This document shows positions 8,570 through 36,094 of a stretch of DNA of 40,224 nucleotides, in pieces. Positions within the stretch are counted from its first letter, which is position 1; every line of letters starts with the position of its first letter. Location of the stretch: positions 1-40,224 of the IMG/VR virus record IMGVR_UViG_3300032770_001053; one strand, written 5' to 3'. The notes below the pieces were generated by a model. The model saw only the letters and a list, made by a program, of their open reading frames with translations, ran no database searches and had not been told where the DNA came from. Source of the stretch: a virus. The position numbers and the translations under genes are program-made.

Positions 8570-9498
8570 AGCGGCTCGCGTTGCTCGCGGTGATGGGTTG
8601 TGGGTTGTGGGCGGTGGGTGCTTCCGCGCAGGCCATCGTAACCGACACGATCACTTACACGGGCGGCGGAGCGGCCAGCGGGACAATGCAGATTGCGGGC
8701 GCGGCCGGCTCCGTTACTGCGCCGATTTATAACGGCACCTTCTTCGTGTCTTTGGCGGTTGGTACTTACACGGTGAACTACTCACTGGCGAACGGAAGTC
8801 AGTGGACCGAGAGCTGGAATGTTTATCTGAGTGCCACGCCCTTGAATCGCACAAACGTCATCGTTCAGAGTTCGAGTACTCCGGCGAGCAGCTTGACTCT
8901 GGGCGGCGACGTTACGGGACCGATTGGGTCAAACTCACTCACGGCGCCGGAGTTTGCGCGGGTGTTGAGTGTCCAGGTTCCGGCGATGGATGCGGTTTGT
9001 GCTCTCGGCGGAGATAGTTCGATTTCCGGACTGACTTGCGACAACAGTGGCAACGCGACTTCGGCTACTCCGTTCACGACGACGGCGGCGATCGCGGCCG
9101 GATGGTGTGCGGCGGGACGCACGCTACGCATTGTGGCGCAGTTTGCGTACTGGTCATCGGCGAGCCCGAGCGCGTTCGATGGGATCGATTTGTACGCGGG
9201 GTCGACGCCGCTGAATATGTGGCGCGCGGGAGCGGGTCCGGCGGCGAGTCAGAGCGATATCGGATTCCCCGTCGAGTGGGACTTCGAGTGCGCCTCGACG
9301 ACGGCGGCGATGGTGAGTACGAAAGTCTTCGGACCGGGCGGCGTGGCGGCCGCGAATTACGTGAATACGGTCGCGCAGCCGGTGACGGTGGGGACCGGGC
9401 AGCTCACGCTGGAGATCGAGGTGTTCTTTTCGTCGGCGACGGCGGGAAATGCGATCCGGTTGATGAGCTTGAAGGTGGTAGAGGAGGGCACGGTTTGA
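8566..9498 (+). CDS. Sec-exported beta-rich protein, unknown
   Basis: A 310-residue protein starting at GTG 8566. Residues 1-21 are a clear signal peptide (KR, LALLAVMGCGLWAVGASA) with a likely cut A21|Q22. The mature protein is Ser/Thr/Gly-rich, beta-sheet in character, and its C-terminal 150 residues (from about PAMDAVCALGG) look like a jelly-roll phage tail/head fibre domain. A short motif LGGDVTGPIG is typical of fibre proteins. The signal peptide is encoded by four NNNTGGG heptamers. A phage protein with a Sec signal is odd: it may act in the periplasm, or on the cell surface as a superinfection or adhesion factor. Function not known. Confidence 0.8.
   Translation: MKRLALLAVMGCGLWAVGASAQAIVTDTITYTGGGAASGTMQIAGAAGSVTAPIYNGTFFVSLAVGTYTVNYSLANGSQWTESWNVYLSATPLNRTNVIVQSSSTPASSLTLGGDVTGPIGSNSLTAPEFARVLSVQVPAMDAVCALGGDSSISGLTCDNSGNATSATPFTTTAAIAAGWCAAGRTLRIVAQFAYWSSASPSAFDGIDLYAGSTPLNMWRAGAGPAASQSDIGFPVEWDFECASTTAAMVSTKVFGPGGVAAANYVNTVAQPVTVGTGQLTLEIEVFFSSATAGNAIRLMSLKVVEEGTV
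8591..8620 (+). repeat. NNNTGGG heptamer repeat cluster, four units
   Basis: Units TGATGGG, TTGTGGG, TTGTGGG, CGGTGGG at 8591-8618. Four GGG runs separated by four bases fit a G-quadruplex pattern. The repeat encodes the hydrophobic core of the signal peptide of the 8566 gene. Confidence 0.8.
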
Positions 9499-9803
9499 AC
9501 GGTTTGACGGGGGACTGGACGTGGCTGATCAAGGCGCTGGATTTGGGTCTCTCGGCGCTACTGATCCTGTTGATTTACCGGCTGACGGATAAGTGGGCCG
9601 GGCGCTTCCTGGAAGCGCAGACGAAGCAAGCGGAGGCGATGGGGGATCTGGCCGCGGCAGTGCGCAGCTCGATCGGGGATCAGCGCGAGATTCTGCTGGC
9701 GGTGCGGGTGTTGGCGACGAAGCAAGACGAGACACGCATGTGGATTCAGGAGCTAGCACAGGGCGCGGCACAGGGCAAGCTATTCGGGGGCGCAACGTCG
9801 TGA
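9495..9803 (+). CDS. Single-TM, coiled-coil protein (Mu gp25/DUF2730-like)
   Basis: A 102-residue protein from TTG 9495 (TTGA overlap; GGAGGG at 9483-9488, six bases upstream). Residues about 8-30 form a transmembrane helix (WLIKALDLGLSALLILLIY). The rest is a charged coiled coil (FLEAQTKQAEAMGDLAAAV). This layout and its position two genes before the two-TM pair and small terminase fit the DUF2730 protein of Mu-like phages, though it could also be an i-spanin-like protein. Position is firm, function inferred. Confidence 0.72.
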   Translation: MNGLTGDWTWLIKALDLGLSALLILLIYRLTDKWAGRFLEAQTKQAEAMGDLAAAVRSSIGDQREILLAVRVLATKQDETRMWIQELAQGAAQGKLFGGATS

Positions 9804-10141
9804 TGAACGAAGTGGAAGCGGCTCGCCACGCTACGGAGCGGGGCATGATCTTACGGACGCTGATGCAGGATTACGCGTCCGAAATGACTTCGGTGCGCAG
9901 CCTGGGCCTGGCGATGGACGCGATGGCGTATCCGCTGAGTCCTGAGGCGCTGGAGTTTCACTTGGTGTACTTGAGCCAGCAGGGCTACGTACAGATCTGG
10001 CGGGCGCGGGAGATGCCGGGGTACCGCATGGACCGGCCGGCGCGGGTGAGTCCATCGGCGGTGCTATTCGCGAAGCTGCTGGCGAAGGGCGTGCAGCTCG
10101 TGGACGGCAAAGTGGCGGCTGATCCGCAGGTGGCTTTCTAA
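9803..10141 (+). CDS. Winged-helix phage protein (Mu gp26/VpaChn25_0724-like)
   Basis: A 112-residue protein. The start could be ATG 9803 or GTG 9800 (both overlap the previous stop). Residues about 8-75 read as a winged helix: RGMILRTLMQDYASEMTSV, LSPEALEFHLVYLSQQGYVQ, and a wing REMPGYR, then a final helix. In Mu-like phages this family sits between DUF2730 and the terminase small subunit, exactly as here. Its biological role is not established. Confidence 0.72.
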   Translation: MNEVEAARHATERGMILRTLMQDYASEMTSVRSLGLAMDAMAYPLSPEALEFHLVYLSQQGYVQIWRAREMPGYRMDRPARVSPSAVLFAKLLAKGVQLVDGKVAADPQVAF

Positions 10142-10332
10142 TGTTCCGCGATCTGGCATACGCACTTACGGTGGCACGGATGATCGGCATAGTTGCGCCG
10201 TTCGGCGCCGTGGTTTGCTGCTTTCTGGCGATACTGCTGGCGATGCATGGCCGGCGCGGATGGGCGTGGTTTATGGCCGCGATGTCGCTGGGGCTGTGCG
10301 CGCTGGGCGCGTGGCTTACGGGGCGATTCTGA
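10141..10332 (+). CDS. Two-TM small membrane protein, holin candidate 1
   Basis: A 63-residue protein starting at ATG 10141 (TAATG overlap). Two transmembrane helices (about 12-35 and 43-60) flank a basic loop (MHGRRG). A CC pair sits in helix 1 (GAVVCCFLAILLAM). It resembles its downstream neighbour in layout and motifs, suggesting tandem duplication. The place before the terminase genes is where Mu keeps its lysis region. Holin activity is an inference from size, topology and context. Confidence 0.65.
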   Translation: MFRDLAYALTVARMIGIVAPFGAVVCCFLAILLAMHGRRGWAWFMAAMSLGLCALGAWLTGRF

Positions 10333-11447: not shown

Positions 11448-12845
11448 ATGGCGGCGCGAGTCAAACCCGTAGTGCCGCTGCTCGACTGGCAGCGGACTTG
11501 GATCGAGGATGAGTCGCGATTCAAGATCATCGCCGCGACTACGCAGGGCGGTAAGTCGTTTGCGACGTCGCTTGACTGGTCGCTGGCGCGGATGAAAAAG
11601 GAATCGGCGCCACTGGGGATCATGCTGAGCGCGAGCGAGCGCCAGTCGGGCGAGCTGATGGAAAAGGTCCGGATGCACACCGAGGCGTGGGGCGTGGCGA
11701 TCGACTCAAAAATGGAGAGCTTCGAAGGCGTGGAAGTCATGCAGCACGTCGCGCGGTTTCCGAACGGGAAGCGGCTGATCGCGCTGCCGGCGAATCCGGC
11801 GACGGCGCGCGGCTACTCGGGCGATGTCTTCCTGGACGAGTTCGCGCTGCACAAGGATGCGCGGGCGATCTGGGCGGCGCTGTTCGGCCGTATCACGCGC
11901 GGCTTCCGCCTGGCGGTGGCATCCACGATCCACGGGACGCAGAACAAGTTCTTCGAGCTGCTGAAGCTGGTGGGGCTGCACACGGGCGTCCGGCCGGGGA
12001 AGCAGCCAGTGCGGGCGAACGGCTGGAGCGGGCACTGGGTCGACATCTACATGTGCCGGGAGCAGGGGCTGAAGGTGGATATCGAAACCCTGCGCGCGGC
12101 GCTGGCGGATGAAGACGTTTTCCAGGAAGAGTACTGCAATGTGCCGATCGATTCCGCGCTGGACTTTATCCCGCTCAATCTGGTGATGGCATGCGAAAGC
12201 GAAGAGGCGGTGAGTGGATTCGATTTCAAGCCCAGAGCGGGGCTGTTTGCCGGCTGGGATATCGCGCGCAAGCGGGATCTGAGCGTGATCTGGATTCTGG
12301 AGCAGCGCGGGAATGTGCTGGTGACGGTGGGCGTGGTGAAGATGCCGCGGACGCGATTCGCGGAGCAGCGCGAGATGGGCGAGCGGATCGCGGCGTGCGT
12401 GGAGCGGATGGCGATCGACACGACGGGGATCGGCGCGCAGCTCGGCGAAGAGCTGGCGGATAAATTCCCGGAGAAGATCGAGCAGGTGAATTTTGCGGGG
12501 ACGTTCGAGTCGGGGAAAGACGATCGCGGCAAGCCGGTGAACGTGCGCATCAAAGAGCACCTGGCGGTTTCGATGAAGACGGCGATGGAGAACCAGGCCG
12601 TGTTGCTGCCGGACGACGAAAACGCCGTCGCGACGCGCCGGGCGTTCCAGAGCGTGAAGCGGATCGTGACACCCACGGGCATGCGGTTCGACAGCGCGCG
12701 TACGGATGCGGGGCACGCGGATGAGTTCTGGGCGGTAGCGCTAGCGCGCGCGGCTTCGGAGAGCGGGGCGAGTTACGTGCCGGCGGCGAGCGTGGGTCTG
12801 GTCGGGAAGCCGGTGATGGCTGGGGCATTCGGGAGGGTATTTTGA
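11448..12845 (+). CDS. Terminase large subunit (Mu gp28-like)
   Basis: A 465-residue packaging motor and nuclease. Walker A TTQGGKS is at about 31-37 (K36). Walker B DVFLDEF is at about 126-132 (D130, E131). The coupling motif is near STIHGTQN (about 159-166). The RNase H-like nuclease domain begins at AGWDIARKRDLSV (D271), with a second acidic site MAIDTTGIG (D324) and a third near DAGHADEFW (about 423-431). Length and motif order fit the Mu gp28/terminase family. In Mu-like phages it packages from inside the integrated genome by headful. Its stop overlaps the TTG start of a mini-gene. Confidence 0.94.
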   Translation: MAARVKPVVPLLDWQRTWIEDESRFKIIAATTQGGKSFATSLDWSLARMKKESAPLGIMLSASERQSGELMEKVRMHTEAWGVAIDSKMESFEGVEVMQHVARFPNGKRLIALPANPATARGYSGDVFLDEFALHKDARAIWAALFGRITRGFRLAVASTIHGTQNKFFELLKLVGLHTGVRPGKQPVRANGWSGHWVDIYMCREQGLKVDIETLRAALADEDVFQEEYCNVPIDSALDFIPLNLVMACESEEAVSGFDFKPRAGLFAGWDIARKRDLSVIWILEQRGNVLVTVGVVKMPRTRFAEQREMGERIAACVERMAIDTTGIGAQLGEELADKFPEKIEQVNFAGTFESGKDDRGKPVNVRIKEHLAVSMKTAMENQAVLLPDDENAVATRRAFQSVKRIVTPTGMRFDSARTDAGHADEFWAVALARAASESGASYVPAASVGLVGKPVMAGAFGRVF

Positions 12846-12952
12846 AGCGGGTGGTGGGTGTTGGGGCTTGGGTGATGGCTTGGCTCACCTACATTGCGGT
12901 TTGGTCGATCGCGGGGAAAGTGCTGGTTCACGCGGGGTGGCTGAAGTGGTGA
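12842..12952 (+). CDS. 36-residue hydrophobic mini-protein
   Basis: A TTG start at 12842 (TTGA overlap with the terminase, GGGAGGG site at 12831-12837) opens a 36-residue reading frame: KRVVGVGAWVMAWLTYIAVW then SIAGKVLVHAGWLKW. It is one long hydrophobic helix, like a small membrane peptide. Its 3' end overlaps the next GTG start (GTGA). The first 35 bases match the mini-ORF at 35775 (32 of 35 identical). Its short length and repeat origin mean it may be only a coupling bridge, but coupling and ribosome site argue for translation. Confidence 0.6.
   Translation: MKRVVGVGAWVMAWLTYIAVWSIAGKVLVHAGWLKW
12849..12879 (+). repeat. NNNTGGG heptamer repeat cluster
   Basis: Units TGGTGGG, TGTTGGG, GCTTGGG, TGATGGC at 12852-12879, preceded by GGG at 12849. 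Four G-runs within 24 bases fit a G-quadruplex pattern. It forms the 5' end of the 36-residue mini-gene. Confidence 0.8.
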
Positions 12953-13332
12953 ATCAGTACCTGGTCTACTCACAGTCGCGCGGCGAGCTGCAGGCGGGCG
13001 GCGTGGCTGGATGGTTCAGCCGCGGATACAGCGGGCACGGCGCGGGGATGAATAACCCCAAGGCGCAGGCGCTCTCCGATGTGGGGCCGATTCCGCAGGG
13101 ATGGTACACCATCGACGCGCCGATCGATCCGCCGTCGCACCTGGGGCCTTGTGCGATGCCTCTGATTCCGGACGCGATGAATGAGATGTTCGGGCGCAGC
13201 GGATTTTACATCCACGGCGACAACGCAGAGATGAACCACTCGGCGAGCGATGGGTGCATCATTCTGCCGCGGCCGGCGCGGGAGATGATCGCGGCGCGGG
13301 GGCCCGGGTTGCGGCTGCCGGTGACGAAGTAA
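12949..13332 (+). CDS. L,D-transpeptidase-like enzyme (DUF2778/Tlde1-like), candidate endolysin
   Basis: A 127-residue protein from GTG 12949 (GTGA overlap). It contains the signature of the YkuD/Tlde1-type fold: GFYIHGDNAEM (H89) followed by SASDGCIIL with catalytic Cys103 and a downstream Arg. Upstream, the run GHGAGMNNP, VGPIPQGWYTI fits DUF2778 proteins. This enzyme class acts on the peptidoglycan tetrapeptide stem; family members work as cross-linking enzymes or as toxins with carboxypeptidase or exchange activity. No signal peptide is seen. Placed between terminase and portal, it may be the endolysin of this phage. That role is inferred. Confidence 0.8.
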   Translation: MNQYLVYSQSRGELQAGGVAGWFSRGYSGHGAGMNNPKAQALSDVGPIPQGWYTIDAPIDPPSHLGPCAMPLIPDAMNEMFGRSGFYIHGDNAEMNHSASDGCIILPRPAREMIAARGPGLRLPVTK

Positions 13333-15575
13333 TGGCGCAGATCGAGACATTAGGCGGGCTGGGCGGGCTGCCGGAGCTGAGCGGAGCGAGCGCGCAGCTT
13401 GGCGGCGTCGGGACTCCGGCGCCGGCGGTGAACGGCGAGCTGGGCGCGACCGGCACGCCGATCTTCTCGGGCTTCCTGCGGGAATTAGGAGAATATAACC
13501 CTAATTTCTCGGCTGGTCCGTTTTCGGCTTTTTTGCTGTACGAGCAGATGCGGCGATCGGACGGCCAGGTGGCGGCGGTGCTGGATGCGTGCAAGCTGCC
13601 GATCCTGGGGGCGGAATGGACGATTGTGCCTCCGGAGGATGCGACGGACGCGGAGAAAGAGGCGGCCGAGTTTATCGAAGAGCAGCTCTTCGTGCGCTGC
13701 CGGTTTAAGCAGGCGCTGCGCAACGCGATGCTGATGCTGGATTTTGGCTGCGCGGTGCATGAAGACGTGTACGTGATGGATGGCGGCAAGGTCTGCCTGG
13801 CGGAGATGGCGCCGCGGCTGCCGCTGACGTTTTATCGCTGGATCACGGATGCCGAGTCGGACAAGCTGCAGGGTCTGGATCAGCTCGGGTACCGCGGCGG
13901 GAATTACGTCCACTGCACAATCCCGCTGAATAAGATGGCGCTGTTCACCTTCCAGATGGAAGGGCGCAACTACGCGGGCCGGGCGCTTACGCGCGCGATG
14001 TATCAGCACTGGTACATGAAGCAGGCGCTGTACACGATCGATGCGATCGCACTGGAGCGCAATGGGCTGGGCGTGCCGGTAGTGACGATGGGCGAGAAAG
14101 CCAAATTGGAAGACAAAAATGCGGCGCTGGCCTGGGTGACGTCGCTGGTGGCGCATGAAAAAGCAGGGATGGTGCTGCCTCCGGGATGGACCTTCAAGCT
14201 GGAGGGGATCACTGGCCAGGTGCGCGACTGCGAGAAGTCCATAACGCACCACAACATGATGATCGCGATGGTGGCGCTGGCGCAGTTTATCGTGATGGGG
14301 CAGTCGGGACGGTCGAGCGGGAATCGATCGCTCGGCGAGACCATGTCCGATTTCTTCTTTCTGGGGCAGCAGGCGACGGCGGACTACATCGGCGAGGTCT
14401 GGTCGAACACTACGATCAAGCGGCTGATGGAGTTTAATTTCGGGCCGGGTGTGCGGCCGCCGACGCTGGAGCCGCAGGATCTACTGGCTTCAAAGATCGA
14501 GACGCTGGGGACGGTGCTGGCGGGTCTGGCGGGCAAGCAGGCGCTGATCACGCCGGACGCGGATCTGGAGGCGTGGCTGAGAAAGAAGCTGGGAGCGCCG
14601 GAGGCTTTGCCGGACGTGGGCGGCGACGATCCGGAGGATGCGGGCGCGACGCAACAACAACAGAACACTCAACAGCGGCCGCAAAAGTACCAGCCAGTCG
14701 GCCCAGGCGAGCAGTTCGGGCGCGGCAAGCCGGTGCAGGAAGCCGGCGCCGCGCCCGCGGGGGGCAGGAAGGTGGCGGGGAGCGCGGTCGCGCGGCGAGC
14801 GCCGAAGACGGCGCGGCAGGCGCAAGCGGAGCAGCACCTGGCGCTCGATGAAATCGTTTCAGGTTTGGACAAGGGGCGAGACGACGCAGCAGCGGCCTTG
14901 CGGGCGGCGCGGCCGAGGGTACAGGCCGAAGTCGTACATAAGCTGGTGGACTCGAATGCGGCGAGCGCACATCGAGTCACGGTCGCGCCGGATGAGAAGC
15001 TGCGGGCGGAGATGCGCAAGGTTCTAGGGGGCGTGCACGAATTCGGGCGCGGGCAGGTGGAGCGGGAACGCGCGCGGCAGTTATCGGGCAAGCCGCCGGG
15101 GGACGCCGCAACGGTGCGTATGTCGGACCGGAGCGGCGATCCTCTCGGTTTGTATGCGGACGGGGTGGTGAGCGAGTTCACAAACAACGTCCAGCAGCGG
15201 GCCACAAATGTCGCGCTCGACTACTTGAAGAAGCCGGGCGACATGACCAAGGGCGAGATCATCCAGGCGATCGGCGATGATCTGGACGACCAGAGCGACG
15301 GCTGGATCGACAACCTGGCGAGCGAGGGCTCGAACGAAGCATTTGCGCAGGGGCGCGAGGCCGGCTACCAGCAGTACAAGGATGAGATCGCTTCGGTGGT
15401 TTATTCCGCGCTGCTGGATATCAACACCTGCGGCCAGTGCGCGGATGCGGACGGGCAAGAGGGCGACACGCCGGGCGATATTCCCGACGTGCCGAATCCG
15501 GATTGCGATGGCGGAGACAAGTGCCGGTGCGTGCATGTGTACGTGTTCGGCGACGAAGGAAAGGCGGCAGCGTGA
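13332..15575 (+). CDS. Portal protein fused to Mu F-type head morphogenesis protein
   Basis: A 747-residue protein starting at ATG 13332 (TAATG overlap). Residues about 45-430 match the Mu gp29/DUF935 portal: FLLYEQMRRSDGQVAAVLDA near the start and an all-helical core with GQSGRSSGNRSLGE. A Gln-rich and Ala/Arg-rich linker (about 435-510) follows. The C-terminal 240 residues match the Mu gpF/SPP1 gp7 minor head family, ending in the Cys cluster CGQC...CDGGDKCRC (C700, C703, C725, C731, C733). In Mu these are two genes; here they form one reading frame without a stop. It builds the packaging vertex. Confidence 0.9.
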   Translation: MAQIETLGGLGGLPELSGASAQLGGVGTPAPAVNGELGATGTPIFSGFLRELGEYNPNFSAGPFSAFLLYEQMRRSDGQVAAVLDACKLPILGAEWTIVPPEDATDAEKEAAEFIEEQLFVRCRFKQALRNAMLMLDFGCAVHEDVYVMDGGKVCLAEMAPRLPLTFYRWITDAESDKLQGLDQLGYRGGNYVHCTIPLNKMALFTFQMEGRNYAGRALTRAMYQHWYMKQALYTIDAIALERNGLGVPVVTMGEKAKLEDKNAALAWVTSLVAHEKAGMVLPPGWTFKLEGITGQVRDCEKSITHHNMMIAMVALAQFIVMGQSGRSSGNRSLGETMSDFFFLGQQATADYIGEVWSNTTIKRLMEFNFGPGVRPPTLEPQDLLASKIETLGTVLAGLAGKQALITPDADLEAWLRKKLGAPEALPDVGGDDPEDAGATQQQQNTQQRPQKYQPVGPGEQFGRGKPVQEAGAAPAGGRKVAGSAVARRAPKTARQAQAEQHLALDEIVSGLDKGRDDAAAALRAARPRVQAEVVHKLVDSNAASAHRVTVAPDEKLRAEMRKVLGGVHEFGRGQVERERARQLSGKPPGDAATVRMSDRSGDPLGLYADGVVSEFTNNVQQRATNVALDYLKKPGDMTKGEIIQAIGDDLDDQSDGWIDNLASEGSNEAFAQGREAGYQQYKDEIASVVYSALLDINTCGQCADADGQEGDTPGDIPDVPNPDCDGGDKCRCVHVYVFGDEGKAAA

Positions 15576-15778: not shown

Positions 15779-16251
15779 CGGTTCCGACGACGGTACGGGC
15801 CTCATTCACGCGGCCGGCGAATGCGACGCAGTACACGGCTGGCAATGTGGTCTCGACGCTGGCCGGCGCGCTGTTGCAGTTCCAGCTCATGGCGGGGAAC
15901 GGGCAGATTATGACGGCGCGGCTGGTGGACGGCGCGAATCAGGCGACGCCCGGCAGCTTCGAGCTGTATTTGTTTTCGGCGGCGCCGGCGGTGCGCGCGG
16001 ACAATGCGGCGCTAGCGCTATCGGCCGCGGAGGCGGCGACGCTGATCGGGGTGATTCCGTTTGTCGACACCCCGTATGCAACGAACGGGGGCGCGGGGGC
16101 GGCCGGGAATCTGACCTTTTGCGAACTGAGTAACCTGCCGTTCTCGATCGGGCCGGCGGGCGGCTTTGTGATCTATGGGCTGCTGGTGGTGCGCAACGCG
16201 TACACGCCGGTGAGTGCGGAGACGTTTGCCGTGCAGTTGGGGGTGATATGA
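15775..16251 (+). CDS. Beta-rich phage structural protein, unknown
   Basis: A 158-residue protein from GTG 15775 (CGGAGGA at 15763-15769). It is Ala/Gly/Thr-rich with alternating strands (FELYLFSAAPAV, GGFVIYGLLVVRN, AETFAVQLGVI) and no signal peptide. It looks like a capsid or fibre decoration protein. Its stop overlaps the signal-peptide gene (ATGA). Confidence 0.72.
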   Translation: MTVPTTVRASFTRPANATQYTAGNVVSTLAGALLQFQLMAGNGQIMTARLVDGANQATPGSFELYLFSAAPAVRADNAALALSAAEAATLIGVIPFVDTPYATNGGAGAAGNLTFCELSNLPFSIGPAGGFVIYGLLVVRNAYTPVSAETFAVQLGVI

Positions 16252-17282
16252 AGCGGTGGCTGGCGTCTGGCGCCTGGTGGCTGGCTCTGGCGGGGACGGC
16301 GATCGCGCAGATCGCGCCCAGCGGGCGGATGGCGGTGACGAGCACGAACCTGGACAATGGCAGTCTGGCGGCCTGGCTGGCGTCACTGGCAGTGGGCAGC
16401 GGGGCGAATACGGCGACGCTCGATAGTCTCACCGGTTTGACCAGCTCGCGCGACATCGAGTTTCCGGACGCCTCGGTGGTGTTGTTGGGGCAGACGTCAT
16501 GGGTCGCGACCATCACGAGCGGATCGACGCAGAATACGCTCACGGCCAATATTCCGGGTCCGTTTCCAACGACGCCGATCGGCGCGGCCGGCTACGTCGT
16601 GGGGTTCTTTCCCGTGGCGAGCTACAACAGCGGCGCGGTGACTCTGGCACTGAGCGTGGCGACGCCCAGCGGGACGCAGAACCTGAGTGCGATGCCGGTG
16701 ACGAAGTGCGGTACGGCGGCGCTGGTTGCGGGGGACATCCTGGCGAATGTGTTCGCGTGGGGAGTGATCGACGGATCCGGCAACCTGGAGATCCAGGATC
16801 CGCAGGCGGCGGGATGTCCTGCTCCACTGGCGCTCAATGGCGCGGGTTCCACGATACTCAGCGCGGCTTCCTCGGGCATCACTTCGACGACGTTCACCGG
16901 GATGGGCCTGACGATGCCGACCGTGCCGGCCGGGACGATGCTGCGCGGGACGTGCGATATCGCCTGGCGGGCGAGCAGCACTTCGTACACGGTGACCTTT
17001 GGCGTGGTGGCCAGCTCGGCGCCCACTTTCCTGGACGTCATCGCTACCATGTACGGGACTTCCTACGTGGCGCCCACGATCACCACGATCACGGGTACGA
17101 CGGCGACGGCGGTGCTGGGTGCGATCACGCCGGCGGCGACGAACACGCTGTACTGGGTACACCTGGTGCTGGAGATCAAATCCACGTCGGCGCAGATTGC
17201 GGTGTCGCCGCAGGTGGAAGTATCGAGCGCGAGCGAGACGGTGACGATCGGCGCCGGATCGTCCTGTGGGTGGCTGCCGTGA
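16248..17282 (+). CDS. Sec-exported beta-rich protein, fibre-like
   Basis: A 344-residue protein. Residues 1-20 (MKRWLASGAWWLALAGTAIA) are a signal peptide with a likely cut at A20|Q21. The mature part is Ser/Thr/Ala-rich. The C-terminal 150 residues (TMLRGTCDIAWRASSTSY, TLYWVHLVLEIKS) resemble a jelly-roll fibre domain like that in the 8566 product. It has few Cys (about four). The protein overlaps its neighbours by 4 bases on both sides, so it is part of the head operon. How an exported protein serves a phage assembled in the cytoplasm is unclear. Confidence 0.78.
   Translation: MKRWLASGAWWLALAGTAIAQIAPSGRMAVTSTNLDNGSLAAWLASLAVGSGANTATLDSLTGLTSSRDIEFPDASVVLLGQTSWVATITSGSTQNTLTANIPGPFPTTPIGAAGYVVGFFPVASYNSGAVTLALSVATPSGTQNLSAMPVTKCGTAALVAGDILANVFAWGVIDGSGNLEIQDPQAAGCPAPLALNGAGSTILSAASSGITSTTFTGMGLTMPTVPAGTMLRGTCDIAWRASSTSYTVTFGVVASSAPTFLDVIATMYGTSYVAPTITTITGTTATAVLGAITPAATNTLYWVHLVLEIKSTSAQIAVSPQVEVSSASETVTIGAGSSCGWLP
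16260..16290 (+). repeat. CTGG heptad repeat, diverged
   Basis: CTGG recurs at 16260, 16267, 16274 and 16281 with a strict 7-base period, then again at 16287. The base content differs from the NNNTGGG clusters, but the period and the position in a signal-peptide gene start are the same. Weakly supported as a relative. Confidence 0.45.
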
Positions 17283-18871
17283 AGAAGTTCCTGGTGCTTG
17301 CTGTTGCGCCGCTGGCTCTGCTGGCGCAGATGATCGCGACGCGCGGGACGGTGCGCACGTCCGGGTCTTTCAACACGCCGAGCCAGGCCAGCTTCCACGT
17401 CATTACGCCGGCGGTGACGAGCTTCAATGTGGCGTACGTCTCCGGCATGGCCTGCATCAGTAACTCGGGCACCGTCGTCGGAACGCCGTCCGGATCGCCG
17501 CCTACGTGCAGCAGCGGCTATCTGTCGATGGGTTACCAGGGCGGCGATCTCGTGAACGGCGTCGCGGTGTGGCCGCCGTGGGAAGTGGCCGGGGATGCGC
17601 CGGTGAACAATGCGTACCTGCTGATGTACGCGGGCGGGACGACGGGTGCAGCGTTCCAGACGCCCGGCAACTGGCTGCTGAAAAACCTGAATGCCGACGT
17701 CTCCGGATGCCCATCGTCCAGCCAGTCATGCCCGTGGGGATTCAATGCCGGCGTGCTGGTGGGTCAGAACTACTATCTAGTTCCGGGCGCGACCTGCGCA
17801 CCTTATTGCGAATTCACGATGGTGTCCACGGCGGGATCGGGTACGCCATCGACCTGGACTTACAGTTATCAGCCGCAAAGCGTGACGAGCTACAGCGGCG
17901 GCGTGACAGGCTTCTACGATGCGGGTCATGGATACGTCTGTTTCGTTCCGGCGCTTTACGGCGGGCACGTTTATTATGTTTGCCACAACGCGGCTCTGGA
18001 TTCGACAGGGCTGAGCGCGTCGGGCTGGTTCTCGCAGGATCTGACGGCGTGCAGCGGTTATCCGGGGACGGCGAACTACAACGGCTCGGCCTATGATGGC
18101 AACCGGTTTGTGTACACGGACCCGGCCACGGGGACGCCGTCGTCGACGATCCTGGGCATCATCGACACGTCCGCCAGCTTCGGCTGCGGGCAGTGGGCAA
18201 CGTTCGATTTGTCGAAGCTGGGGACGTCCGGGTATCCGCGGGTGACCGGCGGCGGCAACCCGGCGCAACTGGCGGGCGCGGACGGGCTCGTGGTGGGCCT
18301 GCAGGGCAGCACGGCGTCGGGGGCGGCTTGGCTGTATGTGGGAGGCTGGGCGCCGTACAAGGTAGGCACCACAGGCACGCTGGTGATGTCATCGACGATC
18401 GCGCGTGTGCAGGTGGGTACGTACAGCGGCGGGATGTTTTATGGCCAGGGCGCGGCGGGCGGCCCGCCGTCGATCAGCAGCTCGGGCGCGACGTGGGAGG
18501 TGTACGACGTAGGGGCGGCGGCGCAGAGCAACCCGGCATTTACCGCGGCCGGCTTCAATACTTCTCCGGGCGCGTACTACGCGTCGGGCACGCGGCAAGG
18601 ACAGCGGATGGTGGCGGCGTGGCAGCTCGGCTGGTTCAATCCGGCGACGCACATGGTGATCTTGAATGCGTCGGACGGGAAGTACGAGCTGGAGTTAGAT
18701 CCGACGAAGCACCTGTGGGACCCGACCGGATGGTATCTAGCCGGCGTGACGGATGCTTCGCTGGTGGCTAACGAGTACGGCGGTCCGGCCGTGCTGGGCG
18801 GCTGGGGCGGTACGACGATCTATCCGAGTACACCCACAGCCAACAATCTGCTGCAGGTGGGCGGACTATGA
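17279..18871 (+). CDS. Large Sec-exported Cys-rich beta protein
   Basis: A 530-residue protein from GTG 17279 (GTGA overlap). Residues 1-16 (KKFLVLAVAPLALLA) form a signal peptide, likely cut A16|Q17. About eleven Cys residues are scattered through the mature protein (GMACISN, SGCPSSSQSC, GATCAPYC, YVCFVP, YVCHNA), suggesting disulfides formed outside the cytoplasm. Repeated Gly/Tyr/Trp strand patterns (WLYVGGWAPY, GGMFYGQG, MVAAWQLGWF) suggest a beta-propeller or similar fold. No enzyme motif recognised. It is the largest member of the exported gene run in the head operon. Confidence 0.76.
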   Translation: MKKFLVLAVAPLALLAQMIATRGTVRTSGSFNTPSQASFHVITPAVTSFNVAYVSGMACISNSGTVVGTPSGSPPTCSSGYLSMGYQGGDLVNGVAVWPPWEVAGDAPVNNAYLLMYAGGTTGAAFQTPGNWLLKNLNADVSGCPSSSQSCPWGFNAGVLVGQNYYLVPGATCAPYCEFTMVSTAGSGTPSTWTYSYQPQSVTSYSGGVTGFYDAGHGYVCFVPALYGGHVYYVCHNAALDSTGLSASGWFSQDLTACSGYPGTANYNGSAYDGNRFVYTDPATGTPSSTILGIIDTSASFGCGQWATFDLSKLGTSGYPRVTGGGNPAQLAGADGLVVGLQGSTASGAAWLYVGGWAPYKVGTTGTLVMSSTIARVQVGTYSGGMFYGQGAAGGPPSISSSGATWEVYDVGAAAQSNPAFTAAGFNTSPGAYYASGTRQGQRMVAAWQLGWFNPATHMVILNASDGKYELELDPTKHLWDPTGWYLAGVTDASLVANEYGGPAVLGGWGGTTIYPSTPTANNLLQVGGL

Positions 18872-19233
18872 TGCGGCTCGCTCTGCTCGCGGTTCTTGGG
18901 TGCTGGGTGCTGGGTGCTCAGACTACGCTTCAGGTGGTTACTGGCACCGCGGGGACTACGTGCACTTTGGTTCAGCAGCCGGGGTCGACGATTCTGGCCA
19001 CGTTGACTTGCATTTCGAGCGATGGGCGCGCCGGGGTTCCGATGAAGATCGAGTCAGCCAGCTCGGCTGTAACGAAAGTGGCGCTGGGGGTTAATGAGGT
19101 GATGTGCCTCATCGGGGTGAATCCGACGATGGGGACGTTCGATTTTGGCATCGGGATCGCGCCGGCGAATGGCATGGTTTGGAATTGCACGGGCGGTCCG
19201 GGATCGATCCTGGTGGGGACGGCGCAATGGTGA
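18868..19233 (+). CDS. Small Sec-exported protein
   Basis: A 121-residue protein (ATGA overlap). Residues 1-17 (MMRLALLAVLGCWVLGA) form a signal peptide, likely cut A17|Q18, encoded by NNNTGGG heptamers. The mature part is beta-rich with four Cys (TTCTL, TLTCIS, VMCLIG, WNCTGG), possibly an Ig-like or small sandwich domain. Not recognised. It lies between the large exported protein and the papain-like enzyme. Confidence 0.75.
   Translation: MMRLALLAVLGCWVLGAQTTLQVVTGTAGTTCTLVQQPGSTILATLTCISSDGRAGVPMKIESASSAVTKVALGVNEVMCLIGVNPTMGTFDFGIGIAPANGMVWNCTGGPGSILVGTAQW
18894..18921 (+). repeat. NNNTGGG heptamer repeat cluster
   Basis: Units TCTTGGG, TGCTGGG, TGCTGGG, TGCTCAG at 18894-18921 encode the signal-peptide core of the 18868 gene. 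Confidence 0.78.
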
Positions 19234-23327: not shown

Positions 23328-23338
23328 GGGCCAGTCTT

Positions 23339-24217: not shown

Positions 24218-24224
24218 GGGGAGA

Positions 24225-24431: not shown

Positions 24432-24441
24432 GGAGGACGAT

Positions 24442-25590
24442 TTGCTGACGTTTGTCAAAGTCGATTTCATTAAGGCGTTGCTGGGCAAGGTGAGCAACGA
24501 CAACAAGACTACGATCCTGGGCGTGCTGGCGGGCGCGCTGCTGGTGGCGCAGGTGAACTGGACGCTGCTATTGAAGGGCGACTCGACACAGATCGGGTAC
24601 GCGGCAGGGGCGCTGGTGACGGCGCTGCTCGGCTACTACACCAATAAGCCGGAGGGGAAGAAACTCGCTTCGCTCGCGGTTGTGGGTCTTGGGCTGTGGA
24701 TGCTGGGCGGCGGCGTAGCGGCCGCGCAGGTGACGCCGCCCCAGCCGATGTGCGCGACGGGGCCTTGCGCGCAGTATCCGATTTCGGATTTGTACATGAC
24801 GGCGGTCTATCCGGATCGCGCGACTTACCTGAAAGAGACCGGGCAGCAGGCGCCGCCGTTCAACGCAGCGCTGCCGATCAAAGAGTGGGTCGGGTCGGGG
24901 CTCGTGAACGTATTCGACGCGCAGTCGCCGTCGACGGGCTATGTGGTGCAGATCAACGTGCCGTCATCAGCGAACGCGGTGAACCTGCCGGGTGTGTACA
25001 CTTATCCGCCGACAGCTCCGCTGCAGCCGACTGTGGCACAGGAAGTGTCGCCGTACGGGGTACTGGGGACGGTGAATCCGAACACGTTGTGCATGCAGGC
25101 GGACGCGCAAAGCCTGGCGGCCGCGCTGACGCCGTTATACGGCAAGACAGTGACTGTGGTGGACGACTCGCCCACTGGATATGTGGGCATCAACTACGGT
25201 ACGGAGACGCGCCGCCAGTGGGGCCTGGTGGCGGGCACTACGGTAGTGGCGGCGTACGCGGAGTCGCTGCTGATCGCGGAGAACACGCCATACCAGGGCG
25301 AGCCTGGGCACTGGACACTGCAGGGCAATACGGCGGCCTGGGTACAGGATCAGCCGGTAACGACTCCGCCGGCGAATGCGGTGACGATTGCGCCGCCGAT
25401 GCGGGCGCTGGTGCCGGGCGAACAGATCGAGCAGGTAGTGGTGACAGTTCCTCCGCCGGTGTGGTACGTGGTGCGGACGGACCTGACGCCGGCGCCGCCG
25501 GCGCCTCCGCCGTGTACGCCGGCCGCGGCGATGCTGCATGGTCCCACGTTTCCTCCGGATCCGTGGGACGGCCGAGTGGGCGGATTCTGA
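24442..25590 (+). CDS. Holin-like N-terminus fused to exported domain
   Basis: A 382-residue protein from TTG 24442 with an AAGGAGGA ribosome site at 24431-24438. Residues 1-72 look like a complete small holin-type protein: one helix at TTILGVLAGALLVAQV and one at IGYAAGALVTALLGYY. Residues 73-96 then form a signal-like segment (KKLASLAVVGLGLWMLGGG then VAAAQ) encoded partly by NNNTGGG heptamers and ending A95|Q96. The remaining 285 residues are a Pro/Thr/Val-rich exported domain (RLGTV-type strands, five Cys). The layout suggests a fusion of two genes across a repeat cassette. Confidence 0.72.
   Translation: MLTFVKVDFIKALLGKVSNDNKTTILGVLAGALLVAQVNWTLLLKGDSTQIGYAAGALVTALLGYYTNKPEGKKLASLAVVGLGLWMLGGGVAAAQVTPPQPMCATGPCAQYPISDLYMTAVYPDRATYLKETGQQAPPFNAALPIKEWVGSGLVNVFDAQSPSTGYVVQINVPSSANAVNLPGVYTYPPTAPLQPTVAQEVSPYGVLGTVNPNTLCMQADAQSLAAALTPLYGKTVTVVDDSPTGYVGINYGTETRRQWGLVAGTTVVAAYAESLLIAENTPYQGEPGHWTLQGNTAAWVQDQPVTTPPANAVTIAPPMRALVPGEQIEQVVVTVPPPVWYVVRTDLTPAPPAPPPCTPAAAMLHGPTFPPDPWDGRVGGF
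24680..24707 (+). repeat. NNNTGGG heptamer repeat cluster
   Basis: Units TTGTGGG, TCTTGGG, CTGTGGA, TGCTGGG at 24680-24707, coding for the second hydrophobic segment of the 24442 product. The 22 bases upstream resemble the same part of the 8566 and 18868 genes. Confidence 0.72.
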
Positions 25591-26080: not shown

Positions 26081-26084
26081 AGGC

Positions 26085-27217: not shown

Positions 27218-27218
27218 G

Positions 27219-29013: not shown

Positions 29014-29022
29014 CAAAAACAC

Positions 29023-31476: not shown

Positions 31477-31477
31477 T

Positions 31478-31930: not shown

Positions 31931-31942
31931 AGGTGAGACAGC

Positions 31943-32250: not shown

Positions 32251-33596
32251 TCGAGGGGATCGCTTCGGATTGGGCGGCGGCGAATGCAAAGCTCGGCAAG
32301 ATGCCGATCTATGTGTTTTCGATCCTGCCGAACAACTCCGTGGTGAGCCCGAACCCGCAGGTGTGGTACGCGACACACGACCTGGCGACGCAGGGCATCA
32401 CAGGCACGCTGCCGGCTTACACGACGGGATTGAAGACGCCGGCGGGATCGACGCAAACGATCGATGTGGTGAACGGGACCTCGTCGATCGGCGAACTGCA
32501 GTGCGAGGTGCTCGATCCGACTGGCGCGGTGCTGACGTTCCTGGGAAACAACGTGCTCGAAGGCGCGACGTGCACGCTGCAGGTCGGGTATCCGGGGATC
32601 GCGTGGACCAGCTTTGTAACTCTGCACACTTACCAGATCTATAAGATTGTGCCGTCGAAGGACTACACCAGTTACTTGTTCATCTCGCGGGACTGGCAGG
32701 TGAACGCGAAGCTGATGGTGGTCTACAACCCGGTGAACGGGATGGAGATCTCGACGGACAATCCGTGGGTTGTCGAGGGGCCGGCACCGGAGATCATCCT
32801 GCAAATCTGGCTGTGGGCGCTGGGGCAGTCGCTTTCGACGGTGGATTACGCGGGGCTGTGGGCGTTGAACTCCGCGGCGGAGGGACTGTTTCCGGCGCGG
32901 CCATTCTGCTTTGTGATCACGGAGAGCTTCGAGGCGAAGCAGTGGCTGGAGACGGAGATCTACAAGCCGTGCGGGCTGTATCCGCTGGTGAACAACCTGG
33001 GACAGATCGGCGCGCAGCCGGCCAGGCCGCCGGCGGCGGGTCCCGCTCCGGGCTACACGTTCAATGAATCGAATGTGACGGTGCTGCCGGGATGGGATCG
33101 CCAGGCCATCATGAACGAAGTCGTGTACCAGGCGGACCAGGATAGCGGCGGCAGTTACGGCAGCTACCAGGTGTTCGTGCAGGGCAGCTCGGTGAGCGAG
33201 TTCGGATGCGCGGGGCAGTTGACGGTGAACAGCGCGGGGCTGCGGTCGTCGTACGGGGCGCAGTCGTTTTGCGAGGACATCGCAATGCGGCTGTTCAATC
33301 GCTTCGCGGGCGCGCCCGAGAATCTGAAGGGCGGCGCGCCGGTGCTCGACGTGGAAGCGTTTTTCATGACGCTGCCGGTGTGGGTTGGCGATTACGTGTA
33401 TCTGACCTATCCGCTGATGCCGAATCCGATGCAGGGCGTGCTGGGCGTGTCGGACCGGATCTATGAAGTGATCGACCGGACGCCGGATTATGCCGCGGGG
33501 AAGATGCGGTACAAGCTGCTGGACACGGGGCTGACGGGTTCGCCGGCGGCGCCGGTGGTGGGGACGGCCGTGGTGGGCACGGCAGCGTTGTTTTAG
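32247..33596 (+). CDS. Tail tip/hub protein
   Basis: A 449-residue protein from ATG 32247 (ATGA overlap). The sequence suggests a baseplate-hub-like protein: an N-terminal strand region, a beta-barrel (IGELQCEVLDPTGAVLTFLG, TLQVGYPGIAWTSFVTLHTY, then QIYKIVPSKDYTSY), an ALGQSL helical insert and a C-terminal domain with GDYVYLTYPLMPNP. Such proteins join the tape measure end to the fibres. No enzymatic motif recognised. Heptamer repeats follow its stop. Confidence 0.75.
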   Translation: MIEGIASDWAAANAKLGKMPIYVFSILPNNSVVSPNPQVWYATHDLATQGITGTLPAYTTGLKTPAGSTQTIDVVNGTSSIGELQCEVLDPTGAVLTFLGNNVLEGATCTLQVGYPGIAWTSFVTLHTYQIYKIVPSKDYTSYLFISRDWQVNAKLMVVYNPVNGMEISTDNPWVVEGPAPEIILQIWLWALGQSLSTVDYAGLWALNSAAEGLFPARPFCFVITESFEAKQWLETEIYKPCGLYPLVNNLGQIGAQPARPPAAGPAPGYTFNESNVTVLPGWDRQAIMNEVVYQADQDSGGSYGSYQVFVQGSSVSEFGCAGQLTVNSAGLRSSYGAQSFCEDIAMRLFNRFAGAPENLKGGAPVLDVEAFFMTLPVWVGDYVYLTYPLMPNPMQGVLGVSDRIYEVIDRTPDYAAGKMRYKLLDTGLTGSPAAPVVGTAVVGTAALF

Positions 33597-33597
33597 G

Positions 33598-33627
33598 TGA
33601 TGGGTGGTGGGTTATGGGTGATAGGGG
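33598..33627 (+). repeat. NNNTGGG heptamer repeat cluster
   Basis: Units TGATGGG, TGGTGGG, TTATGGG, TGATAGG at 33598-33625 lie between the hub gene stop (33596) and the MazG-like coding region. Four G-runs fit a G-quadruplex. Reading from ATG 33600 a 16-codon mini-ORF (MGGGLWVIGAALRWRK) ends at 33650; it is probably not a real gene. Confidence 0.75.
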
Positions 33628-33955: not shown

Positions 33956-34404
33956 GGGCACTGGACGTGTATCAGGGATCGGACGGCGAGGCGACGAAGG
34001 CTCTCTACGCCGATCTAGAGAAGTGCGGGCCGATCGGCGTGGTGGCGCTGAATCTGTTTCGCGCACAGAAGTGCTCGGCGCGGGCGAAGATGTATCGCGG
34101 GCATCGATTCAAAGATGCCGCGTACGAGCGCAAGAACTGGTCGATGGGGCTGCTGTGCGACGCGCTGATGGCGCACGCGGCCGAGTTGCGCATCCGCTGG
34201 GGATGGGAGATCGACCGCAGTGAGACGTTTGCGCCCTACGTGCTGTACGTCGAGCTGCCGCAGGGGCAGGTCAGCTTTCATGCGCGCGTGCGCGGCCGCG
34301 GTCCGGACTTCGCGGGGAAGTGGGACGGGGCGACGGGCGCGTCGTCGATCCGCATCGTGAGCTTTTGTGAGAGCGTGCTCGGGGGCGGCGTGCTCGCCTG
34401 GTGA
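33952..34404 (+). CDS. Conserved phage protein, unknown
   Basis: A 150-residue protein from GTG 33952 (GTGA overlap, AAGGAGG at 33938-33944). It contains a pattern I associate with many uncharacterised phage proteins: LNLFRAQKCSARAKMYRG, YERKNWSMGLLCDAL, WGWEID and YVLYVELPQGQVSFHARVRG. A WxW/His-rich core hints at a nucleotide or metal-binding enzyme. Its coupling to the MazG-like gene suggests a joint role. No named function. Confidence 0.75.
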   Translation: MRALDVYQGSDGEATKALYADLEKCGPIGVVALNLFRAQKCSARAKMYRGHRFKDAAYERKNWSMGLLCDALMAHAAELRIRWGWEIDRSETFAPYVLYVELPQGQVSFHARVRGRGPDFAGKWDGATGASSIRIVSFCESVLGGGVLAW

Positions 34405-34408
34405 AGCG

Positions 34409-34906
34409 ATGAACCTGACCTTATCCCAGCAGCCGGCATTCAGCCAGGTGGCGCAGAGTGCGCTCAACACCGGGGCGGTGTTGACGGCCGCGATCATGCA
34501 GGCGCTGAACGAGAACGCCAAGTTCGCTGTGGCGCGATCCGAGGAGTTTTACGGCTTCTATGTGAATGGGCAGACGGTGGTGTTGCCGGTGTCGCCGCTG
34601 GACGGCTATACGTACGCGCGGAATGAGCTGAGCTACCTGTGCTGTCCGTACTGGACGGGCGCGATGCTCACGGCACTAGAGGGCGGCGTGGCCGATGCCG
34701 GGATCGATTCGGACGGCGGCACTATTCCCCCTTATCGCGGCTATGCGAGCGGGCCGGGCTGCCTGACGCGCGTGCAGATGACCGTGAATCAATCGACGGG
34801 CGTCGTAGGCAGCACTATGACTTACGGCCTCAACATACTCGGTGAACCTGTCGCGGCAAATGATGGTGTCGTACTCGTGATGACGATCGCGCGGAGGCTG
34901 CGATGA
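34409..34906 (+). CDS. Tail-end protein paralog 1
   Basis: A 165-residue protein from ATG 34409. Shares with the 34903 and 36091 products the block LTAAIMQALNENAKFAVARS, EEFYGFYVNGQTVVLPVSPL, DGYTYARNELSYL and a closing IARRLR. It looks like a fibre-attached or tail-tip beta protein. Function unknown, but triplication near the fibre gene suggests host-range adaptation. Confidence 0.75.
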   Translation: MNLTLSQQPAFSQVAQSALNTGAVLTAAIMQALNENAKFAVARSEEFYGFYVNGQTVVLPVSPLDGYTYARNELSYLCCPYWTGAMLTALEGGVADAGIDSDGGTIPPYRGYASGPGCLTRVQMTVNQSTGVVGSTMTYGLNILGEPVAANDGVVLVMTIARRLR

Positions 34907-35778
34907 GCACGCTGCTGGGCCTGGCGGCGGTGCCGGCCGCGGTAGCGTTCACGGTCGGAACTCCGGAGACGACGCCGGCGCCGATGTATGTGACGATCGA
35001 GGCGTGGGACGCTCATGACGGGGTGTGGATCTCGCCGCCGATCGCGACGGTGACGCTGACGCCGGCCGCGGGGACGCCGTCGTCTTTGTTCTCGACCGGG
35101 ACGCCCAGCGGCGATACGTTTGACGTGTCAGTGAGCGCGTCGGAGCTGAGCACGCTGCTGGCGACGCCGGGCACTTACGGCGCGACGGTGACGGTGACCT
35201 GCTCGCCGATGGCGGCGGGCGACGACGGCGCGCCTGCGGGTGGCTGGACGTTCACGACGCTGGAGATTCCGGTATCGCTAACGATCAACCCACAGGTGGC
35301 TTCGGCGGCCGCGCCGATGACTCTGGAGGCGGAGCCGGGCTTCACGGAGATGCTGGACGCGTGGCTGGCGACGGGCATGCCGCTGACGACGGCGGTGGTG
35401 AAGGCGCTGAACGCGGCGATCAAGTTTGCGGCCGTGCGCACGGAGGTGTTCTACGGCTACTACGCGATCGGGGAGACCGTGCCTGTGCCGACATCCTTGA
35501 TCGACGGGTATAACTACTCGCGCGAGGAGCTGCGGTATGTCTGGTCGGTTTACTGGACCGCGAGTCCGGGGCCGGGATTTGTGGAGGGCAGCATCATCGC
35601 GCCGACGACAGGCGCCACGAGCGCGGCGGGGACGCTGCTGCAATTCGGCTATTACGTGGACCAGAACACGGGCGACATTTCGGGCAAGACGAGTTACTAC
35701 ACGCCGGGCAAGAGCCAGTCGGATACGACGGATGGGATTCTGATGGTCCACACGATCGCGAAGAGGCTGAGGACATGA
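34903..35778 (+). CDS. Tail-end protein paralog 2 with N-terminal extension
   Basis: A 291-residue protein (ATGA overlap). The N-terminal half (about 1-128) is a beta-rich domain (YVTIEAWDAHDGVWISPPIA). The C-terminal half matches the family of 34409 and 36091: LTTAVVKALNAAIKFAAVRT, EVFYGYYAIGETVPVPTSLI, DGYNYSREELRYVW and TIAKRLRT at the end. An extra Ig-like half distinguishes it from its paralogs. Confidence 0.75.
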   Translation: MSTLLGLAAVPAAVAFTVGTPETTPAPMYVTIEAWDAHDGVWISPPIATVTLTPAAGTPSSLFSTGTPSGDTFDVSVSASELSTLLATPGTYGATVTVTCSPMAAGDDGAPAGGWTFTTLEIPVSLTINPQVASAAAPMTLEAEPGFTEMLDAWLATGMPLTTAVVKALNAAIKFAAVRTEVFYGYYAIGETVPVPTSLIDGYNYSREELRYVWSVYWTASPGPGFVEGSIIAPTTGATSAAGTLLQFGYYVDQNTGDISGKTSYYTPGKSQSDTTDGILMVHTIAKRLRT

Positions 35779-35831
35779 AGAAGCGGGTGGTGGGTGTTGG
35801 GTGCTGGGTGATGGGGGTGCTGCAGGCTTGA
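35775..35831 (+). CDS. 18-residue hydrophobic mini-ORF made of heptamer repeats
   Basis: ATG 35775 (ATGA overlap with the preceding stop) opens an 18-codon frame, MKKRVVGVGCWVMGVLQA, ending at TGA 35829-35831, which overlaps the TTG start of the next gene (TTGA). It is almost entirely the NNNTGGG repeat. Its first part resembles the mini-gene at 12842. It may be translated as a coupling bridge. A functional peptide is not shown. Confidence 0.45.
   Translation: MKKRVVGVGCWVMGVLQA
35788..35817 (+). repeat. NNNTGGG heptamer repeat cluster
   Basis: Units TGGTGGG, TGTTGGG, TGCTGGG, TGATGGG at 35788-35815, then GG. GGG runs at 35792, 35799, 35806 and 35813 with four-base loops form a canonical G-quadruplex pattern. 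The 35 bases from 35780 match 12844-12878 at 32 positions. Confidence 0.83.
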
Positions 35832-36094
35832 CTGATCTACCGATCGAGGCTGCCCAACAGGCGAAGTGGGATCTGGGCCGGATAAAGTATGGTCCGGTGT
35901 TTGTCGGCAACCCGATTGAGCAGCTCGATGATGAACTGATCGACGCGCTGAACTATTGCGAAGAGGCCGCGCGGCGCGGGTATGCGATCGCGGAGATCGC
36001 CGATGACATCCGGATGATCTGCGAGCGCGTGCGCGCGCTTCCAGCACCCAGAACCCAACACCCAGCACCTGCGGCGCCGGAGGCGACGCTATGA
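35828..36094 (+). CDS. Small conserved phage protein, MazG-like helices
   Basis: An 88-residue protein from TTG 35828 (TTGA overlap). The sequence KYGPVFVGNPIEQLDDELID then ALNYCEEAARRGYAIAEIAD fits a short all-alpha phage protein (EL.DALNY pattern as in small nucleotide-pyrophosphohydrolase-like or dimer proteins). The C-terminal tail (LPAPRTQHPAPAAPE) is coded by reverse-oriented heptamers at 36047. A possible relative of the MazG-like gene 33614. Function uncertain. Confidence 0.68.
   Translation: MTDLPIEAAQQAKWDLGRIKYGPVFVGNPIEQLDDELIDALNYCEEAARRGYAIAEIADDIRMICERVRALPAPRTQHPAPAAPEATL
36047..36069 (-). repeat. NNNTGGG heptamer repeat cluster, inverted
   Basis: CCCAGAA, CCCAACA and CCCAGCA at 36047-36067 are the reverse complement of the heptamer cluster, about 230 bases from the plus-oriented cluster at 35788. 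The two could pair as an inverted repeat flanking the 35828 gene. Confidence 0.78.

What the first reader, a model, noticed from the sequence alone, without database searches (positions are those of the whole stretch)
8591..36069. Dispersed NNNTGGG heptamer repeats at gene starts throughout a phage genome
Clusters of three to four heptamers occur at 8591, 12852, 18894, 24680, 33598, 35788 and, inverted, at 36047, with a diverged CTGG version at 16260. Most coincide with the first codons of a gene or mini-gene, and four have four G-runs with mostly 3-5-base spacers, fitting a G-quadruplex. Heptanucleotide dispersed repeats are known in cyanobacteria (STRR) but I know of none described in a Mu-like phage. 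They could be mobile or slippage-driven gene-start cassettes, or regulatory RNA/DNA structures.
Basis: partly seen in the sequence, partly recalled or inferred. Interest (0 to 1): 0.82.

Follow-up and report, generated by a model that had tools for sequence, protein, structure and literature searches.

The report
Seven-base repeat arrays in soil phages
A soil phage genome carries short runs of a seven-base DNA repeat at the starts of several genes, where they also spell secretion-signal-like peptides; its relatives and some soil Acidobacteria carry the same kind of seven-base runs with other sequences, so this looks like a shared, poorly described repeat habit and not a unique element.

Summary
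Six strict 3x(NNNTGGG) arrays stand against about 0.02 expected, and 3 against 0.066 when the window's proteins are fixed and synonymous codons redrawn. Four in-phase TGG occur at period 7 five times on the + strand and never at periods 5, 6 or 8-12.

Relatives change the reading. Of 12 portal relatives, 8 carry such arrays: 99 in 189 kb, almost all at period 7, with 66 different unit sequences, 45 with an inverted partner nearby, over-represented in gene junctions, some inside terminase and protease genes. Five B3-like reference phages have none. Random Acidobacteriota DNA has them too, sharing unit sequences beyond chance. Only 16 of 99 could form a G-quadruplex, so G4 is not the common principle.

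Best read as STRR/LSSR-type heptanucleotide repeats, close to Rehm's GGGNATC repeats, here in transposable phages with many unit sequences. Seven being coprime to three, a TGGGTGC array reads the same stop-free hydrophobic heptapeptide in every sense frame; in the window it forms the core of signal-peptide-like starts, where a homologue has an ordinary signal peptide. Other viruses show no general gene-start preference. Origin by slippage is inferred; host unproven.

The parts
8591..8618 (+). 4x NNNTGGG array; encodes MGCGLWAVG in the hydrophobic core of a predicted signal peptide (gene 8566-9498, VKRLALLAVMGCGLWAVGASAQA)
   Evidence: homologue in L062 has an ordinary signal peptide without the array
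8575..8590 (+). companion module CTCGCGTTGCTCGCGG directly before the array
12852..12872 (+). 3x NNNTGGG array at the start of a 36-aa TM-like ORF (12842-12952) at the 3' junction of the terminase gene
   Evidence: L062 has a 4x NNNTCAG array at the same junction
16257..16284 (+). 4x NNNCTGG array in the signal-peptide-like start of gene 16248-17282 (MKRWLASGAWWLALAGTAIAQ)
   Evidence: none in Markov sequence
18894..18914 (+). 3x NNNTGGG array in the signal-peptide-like start of gene 18868-19233 (MMRLALLAVLGCWVLGAQ)
18877..18892 (+). companion module CTCGCTCTGCTCGCGG
24679..24706 (+). degenerate array (four in-phase TGG, two strict TGGG) coding part of LAVVGLGLWMLGGGVAAAQ inside ORF 24442-25590; a signal-peptide-like or TM segment, no in-frame start just upstream
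24664..24679 (+). companion module CTCGCTTCGCTCGCGG
33598..33618 (+). 3x NNNTGGG array between the stop at 33596 and the next gene; mini-ORF from 33597, VMGGGLWVIGAALRWRK*
35788..35815 (+). 4x NNNTGGG array in an 18-codon signal-peptide-like mini-ORF (start 35775, MKKRVVGVGCWVMGVLQA*) whose stop overlaps TTG 35828 of the next ORF
36047..36067 (-). 3x NNNTGGG array, inverted partner of 35788; read antisense it codes the Pro-rich C-terminus LPAPRTQHPAPAAPEATL
   Evidence: (88% complementary arms)
11448..12845 (+). terminase large subunit; homologues in L064, L066, L067 contain heptamer arrays inside the gene
13254..15575 (+). Mu-type portal protein; used to find the phage relatives; its 3' junction carries arrays in L061, L064, L065, L067, L068, L069, L071
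1170..3281 (+). MuA-type transposase: the phage is a transposable (Mu/B3-like) phage

Best explanation
The runs are degenerate heptanucleotide tandem arrays of the STRR / long-simple-sequence-repeat kind that this group of Mu/B3-like transposable phages shares with Acidobacteriota-type soil bacteria. The unit length is 7; the sequence of the unit varies from array to array. They most likely arise and turn over by replication slippage with a 7-nt step and persist where a dense phage genome tolerates them: gene junctions, linkers, N- and C-termini. In the window the predominant unit is TGGGTNN. Because 7 and 3 are coprime, the sense strand of a TGGGTGC array reads one stop-free hydrophobic heptapeptide (GCWVLGA and rotations) in all three frames, so such an array can become the hydrophobic core of a signal peptide or TM segment. 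That is what is seen at 8591, 16260, 18894 and 12852, probably 24680, and as orphan mini-ORFs at 35775 and 33597. The antisense strand reads a Pro/Ser/Thr/Gln/His tail and is found at a C-terminus (36047). Shown: DNA-level excess, period 7, many units in relatives, junction bias, inverted pairs, the coding consequence. Inferred: slippage as origin, use as signal peptides, an Acidobacteriota host.
For: Excess over Markov and codon-matched nulls. Period 7 only. Generic detector (same 4-mer core at fixed period, at least 4 units): 93 arrays at period 7 in 8 more distant relatives, 6 in the 4 nearer ones, 3 in the window; other periods 0-13; Markov null about 0; five B3-like reference phages 0 in 189 kb. 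66 unit sequences in 99 arrays. 54 of 99 in the 12% of sequence called intergenic, many 3-30 nt before a start. 45 of 99 have an inverted partner within 350 nt, 8 a direct one. Same junctions, other units: TerL/portal TGGG in the window and TCAG in L062; portal/protease arrays in 7 of 12 relatives. Arrays at period 7 in unselected Acidobacteriota DNA, with 7 of 22 unit sequences identical to phage ones against 1.8 expected from letter shuffles. Signal peptide independent of the array: L062 homologue of gene 8566 starts MRRGLSILLWLATAQA; the n- and c-regions of the window's signal peptides lie outside the arrays.
Against: No wider signal-peptide preference: 12 sense against 18 antisense arrays near ATGARR in IMG/VR; G048 arrays are nearly all intergenic. 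Slippage alone does not obviously explain why units of so many sequences keep to 7, stay at 4-6 units, and recur at the same junctions. No array was seen to change length; no near-identical phage was found. No close prophage in the sampled Acidobacteriota; the one hit (G433) is 27% identical and without arrays. Signal peptides were called by a rough rule, not SignalP; genes in relatives and bacteria by a home-made codon-usage caller. Close relatives L009 and L063 have no 4-unit array.
Confidence: 0.66

Rival explanations
1. Protein-level only: the phage has several Trp/Gly/Val/Leu-rich signal peptides in a G-rich genome, and TGGG runs fall out of ordinary codons.
For: Given the protein, several TGGG are forced (M-G, W-G/A, V-G with GTG); GGGG 232 against CCCC 14 on the + strand.
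Against: Fixed-protein codon null gives 0.066 against 3; shuffled N-termini give 0-0.0004; a 7-nt period is not a codon multiple; arrays at 33598, 35788 and 36047 lie outside signal-peptide genes; relatives carry arrays in non-coding junctions.
Confidence: 0.08
2. G-quadruplex regulatory element at gene starts, like the GGGNATC repeats of Xanthomonas and Nostoc.
For: Four window arrays match the G4 motif; Rehm et al. 2015 found by CD spectroscopy evidence that such heptamers fold, and a preference for four units (PMC4692102).
Against: Only 16 of 99 arrays in relatives can form a G4; several sites in the window have only three G-runs; window G4 count 8 against 4.4 expected.
Confidence: 0.1
3. 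Gene-start cassette copied between genes by recombination: signal-peptide-coding starts (CTCGCNNNGCTCGCGG + array; AAGCGGGTGGTGGGTGTTGGG) duplicated onto unrelated genes.
For: Module at 8575, 18877 and 24664, each directly before an array; 12833-12878 and 35769-35814 83% identical over 46 nt.
Against: Only 14-46 nt shared; the module encodes LAxLAV, a common signal-peptide start; not found in 14 Acidobacteriota genomes, and 7 chance-like hits in IMG/VR; does not explain the many unit sequences in relatives.
Confidence: 0.22
4. Slippage-driven phase variation: gain or loss of a 7-nt unit shifts the frame and switches genes on and off or fuses the mini-ORFs to the next gene.
For: 7 is 1 modulo 3; at 35788 one more unit would put the 18-codon signal-peptide-like start in frame with the following ORF; 18894 has perfect neighbouring units.
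Against: Arrays are short (3-4 units) and mostly imperfect, so slippage should be slow; no length variants seen, because no near relatives are available.
Confidence: 0.12

Closest known systems
GGGNATC heptameric repeats of Xanthomonas and Nostoc (Rehm et al. 2015, PMC4692102)
   Same: 7-nt G-rich unit with variable positions, dispersed, preference for four units, mostly near genes, often inverted pairs
   Different: There mainly one unit type per genome and intergenic, in bacterial chromosomes; here in phages, many unit types in the group (mostly unable to form G4), and in the window inside gene starts
TAACTGA heptamer direct repeats of marine Beggiatoaceae (MacGregor 2015, PMC4679880)
   Same: Heptamer direct repeats just upstream of start codons; that paper also notes that a heptamer array translates into one repeating heptapeptide
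   Different: One fixed unit; forward strand carries stops in all frames; no phage, no signal-peptide use
STRR of cyanobacteria / long simple sequence repeats (Mrazek et al. 2007, known here only through PMC4679880, PMC4692102 and from memory)
   Same: Heptanucleotide tandem repeats; heptamers the commonest long unit class; polymerase slippage proposed
   Different: Described for bacterial chromosomes; no phage copies known to me
Rickettsia palindromic elements (from memory)
   Same: Short repeats, sometimes palindromic, inserted in frame in protein genes, as in TerL of L066 and L067
   Different: RPEs are sequence families of about 100-150 nt; here different short heptamer arrays

Membership tests
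STRR / heptanucleotide LSSR | Tandem array of 7-nt units beyond chance | tested here: met
STRR / heptanucleotide LSSR | Dispersed at many places in the genome | tested here: met
   eight sites in the window; up to 26 per contig in relatives
STRR / heptanucleotide LSSR | Copy number varies between close strains (slippage) | not testable with these tools
   no near-identical phage found
GGGNATC repeats (Rehm et al.) | Unit GGGNATC | tested here: not met
   window unit is TGGGTNN / GGGTNNT
GGGNATC repeats (Rehm et al.) | Four G-runs able to form a G4 | tested here: inconclusive
   four window arrays fit the motif; 16 of 99 in relatives; folding not measured
GGGNATC repeats (Rehm et al.) | Intergenic preference | tested here: inconclusive
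   relatives 54 of 99 in 12% intergenic DNA; window arrays mostly inside gene starts
REP / MITE / palindromic mobile element | One conserved sequence family with defined ends | tested here: not met
   66 unit sequences in 99 arrays
Signal-peptide-coding gene start | Positive n-region, hydrophobic core, small-residue cleavage region | tested here: met
   crude rule only for 8566 and 18868, by eye for 16248
Mu/B3-like transposable phage | MuA-type transposase, MuB-type AAA ATPase, Mu portal, Mu I protease | tested here: met

The most novel reading that the evidence does not exclude
These phages and their hosts share an active process with a fixed 7-nt step that builds short (4-6 unit) arrays of varying sequence, often as inverted pairs, at gene junctions. 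The step, not the sequence, is what is conserved, and arrays whose sense strand reads hydrophobic are recruited as secretion signals in any frame.
Probability: 0.2. Interest if true: 0.85.

Novelty: new variant of a known kind. Interest (0 to 1): 0.55.

Why it matters
Heptamers are reported to be the commonest long repeat unit in many bacterial genomes, for reasons unknown. A phage group in which arrays of 66 unit sequences keep to a period of 7 and recur at the same gene junctions gives a small, comparable system for asking why seven. It also shows a simple route from repeat to protein feature: an array whose unit length is coprime to the codon reads the same hydrophobic peptide in every frame and can become a signal-peptide core wherever it lands near a start.

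Tried and rejected
Protein-only origin (rejected). G4 as the common principle. General enrichment of sense arrays at ATGARR starts in viral contigs: 12 sense, 18 antisense, not supported. Signal-peptide use in Acidobacteriota genome G048: arrays nearly all intergenic. Genome-contig search for gene starts TGAAGCGG + array: 14 scattered hits in many phyla, no clear family. Companion module CTCGCNNNGCTCGCGG as a wider element: no hit in 14 genomes, chance-like hits in phages. Host by portal search in Acidobacteriota: nothing close. Concentration of unit variation at fixed positions: 10% of arrays at p<0.05, blurred by array ends, inconclusive. Rfam: no match in the window. Pfam on the secreted-type proteins: no match. 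The reverse-pattern control of the genome search is no control here, as the reversed pattern is almost the same repeat. The G048 and G295 stretches were chosen for their arrays, so only searches count as unselected.
Full report
Observation. 24680 has two strict units but four in-phase TGG, and 16257-16284 is four NNNCTGG units. Against order-2, -4 and -5 Markov sequence, 6 runs of three units face 0.005-0.02 expected. TGG four times in phase occurs five times on + at period 7 and never at 5, 6 or 8-12. The signal is therefore at DNA level.

Setting. The window is a 40-kb virus record of a transposable phage: MuA-type transposase, AAA ATPase, terminase, Mu portal, Mu I protease, major head protein. 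Relatives found by portal are 46-56% identical in the alignment. No near-identical phage was found, so variation at a site could not be studied.

What the arrays encode. At 8566, 16248 and 18868 the arrays lie in the hydrophobic core of signal-peptide-like starts (VKRLALLAVMGCGLWAVGASAQA, MKRWLASGAWWLALAGTAIAQ, MMRLALLAVLGCWVLGAQ), at 12842 in a TM-like start, at 24680 in a similar segment inside a longer ORF, and at 35775 and 33597 in mini-ORFs of 18 and 17 codons. A homologue of gene 8566 in L062 starts MRRGLSILLWLATAQA, an ordinary signal peptide without heptamers. So the signal peptide is not a by-product of the array; the window's version is built with it. The arithmetic behind this: a 7-nt unit steps through all three frames, so a TGGGTGC array reads the same heptapeptide G-C-W-V-L-G-A (rotated) in any sense frame, without stops and hydrophobic, while its antisense reads A-P-S-T-Q-H-P. 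MacGregor made a like remark for TAACTGA (PMC4679880). The antisense array at 36047 codes the C-terminus LPAPRTQHPAPAAPEATL. One more unit at 35788 would place the mini-ORF in frame with the next ORF; whether this ever happens is unknown.

Relatives change the picture. A detector that asks only for the same 4-mer at a fixed period, four times or more, found 3 arrays at period 7 in the window, 6 in the four nearer relatives and 93 in eight more distant ones; other periods gave 0-13 and Markov sequence about none; five B3-like reference phages (L225-L229) had none in 189 kb. The units differ: 66 distinct consensus heptamers among 99 arrays; 70 arrays have 4 units, 26 have 5, 3 have 6; 16 could form a G-quadruplex. 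Of the 99, 54 lie in the 12% of sequence called intergenic, many 3-30 nt before a start; 45 have an inverted partner within 350 nt, 8 a direct one. In L064, L066 and L067 arrays lie inside the terminase gene and in L067 inside the protease gene; in L066 and L067 the terminase reading frame continues through them, L064 is interrupted. The junction after TerL carries TGGG units in the window and TCAG units in L062; the portal/protease junction carries arrays in 7 of 12 relatives.

Bacteria. In a sample of 396 Acidobacteriota genomes, 55 have at least one TGGGTNN triple and a few have dozens. Unselected stretches (549 kb) contain arrays of several units at period 7, 18 of 34 with an inverted partner. 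Their consensus units match phage units exactly in 7 of 22 cases against 1.8 from letter shuffles. In G048 the TGGG arrays are nearly all intergenic. This suggests a shared pool and fits an Acidobacteriota host, but no close prophage was found, so the host is not shown. Similar runs also turn up in other phyla.

Mechanism. The most economical account is slippage with a 7-nt step, as proposed for heptanucleotide repeats (Mrazek, cited in PMC4679880 and PMC4692102), with survival where tolerated. Shown: excess, period, unit diversity, junction bias, inverted pairs, coding consequence. Inferred: slippage, export, host. Not explained: why units of so many sequences keep to 7 and to 4-6 copies, and why nearly half are paired as inverted repeats.

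Comparison. The closest described repeats are the GGGNATC heptamers of Xanthomonas and Nostoc (PMC4692102): dispersed, near genes, often in inverted pairs, four units preferred, G4-forming in vitro. The window's unit is different, and most arrays of the phage group cannot form a G4, so it works like that class in layout but is not a member of that unit family. TAACTGA repeats (PMC4679880) share the position just before starts.

Limits. The broader claim that gene-start arrays favour the sense strand failed in IMG/VR (12 against 18). The literature search covers open-licence papers only.

Noticed in passing
L064:6995-7185; L066:4729-5069; L067:3877-4340 and 7083-7470: Heptamer arrays, often as hairpins, inside the terminase and Mu I protease genes of relatives; in L067 the terminase frame continues through two of them.
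   Followed up: partly
window 8566, 16248, 17270, 18868, 22875: At least five genes of this phage start with signal-peptide-like N-termini, and relatives show the same habit; Pfam gives no match for their products.
   Followed up: partly
window, whole + strand: Strong strand asymmetry: GGGG 232 against CCCC 14, TGGG 293 against CCCA 38.
   Followed up: no
window 39917-40003 and 40119-40205: 87-bp direct repeat, 98% identical, at the end of the record, inside and just after the large last ORF.
   Followed up: no
L064, L068, and G048 stretches: A minority of arrays at period 8 besides the period-7 ones.
   Followed up: no
L097 (Acidobacteriota genome G038): An ORF starting MKRFRMGALALGSWVLGVGCWVLGLRR with five TGGG units, a possible second case of a signal-peptide-like start made from heptamers.
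   Followed up: partly
L271 (G433:C207): Distant Mu-like prophage (portal 27% identical) in an Acidobacteriota genome, without heptamer arrays.
   Followed up: no
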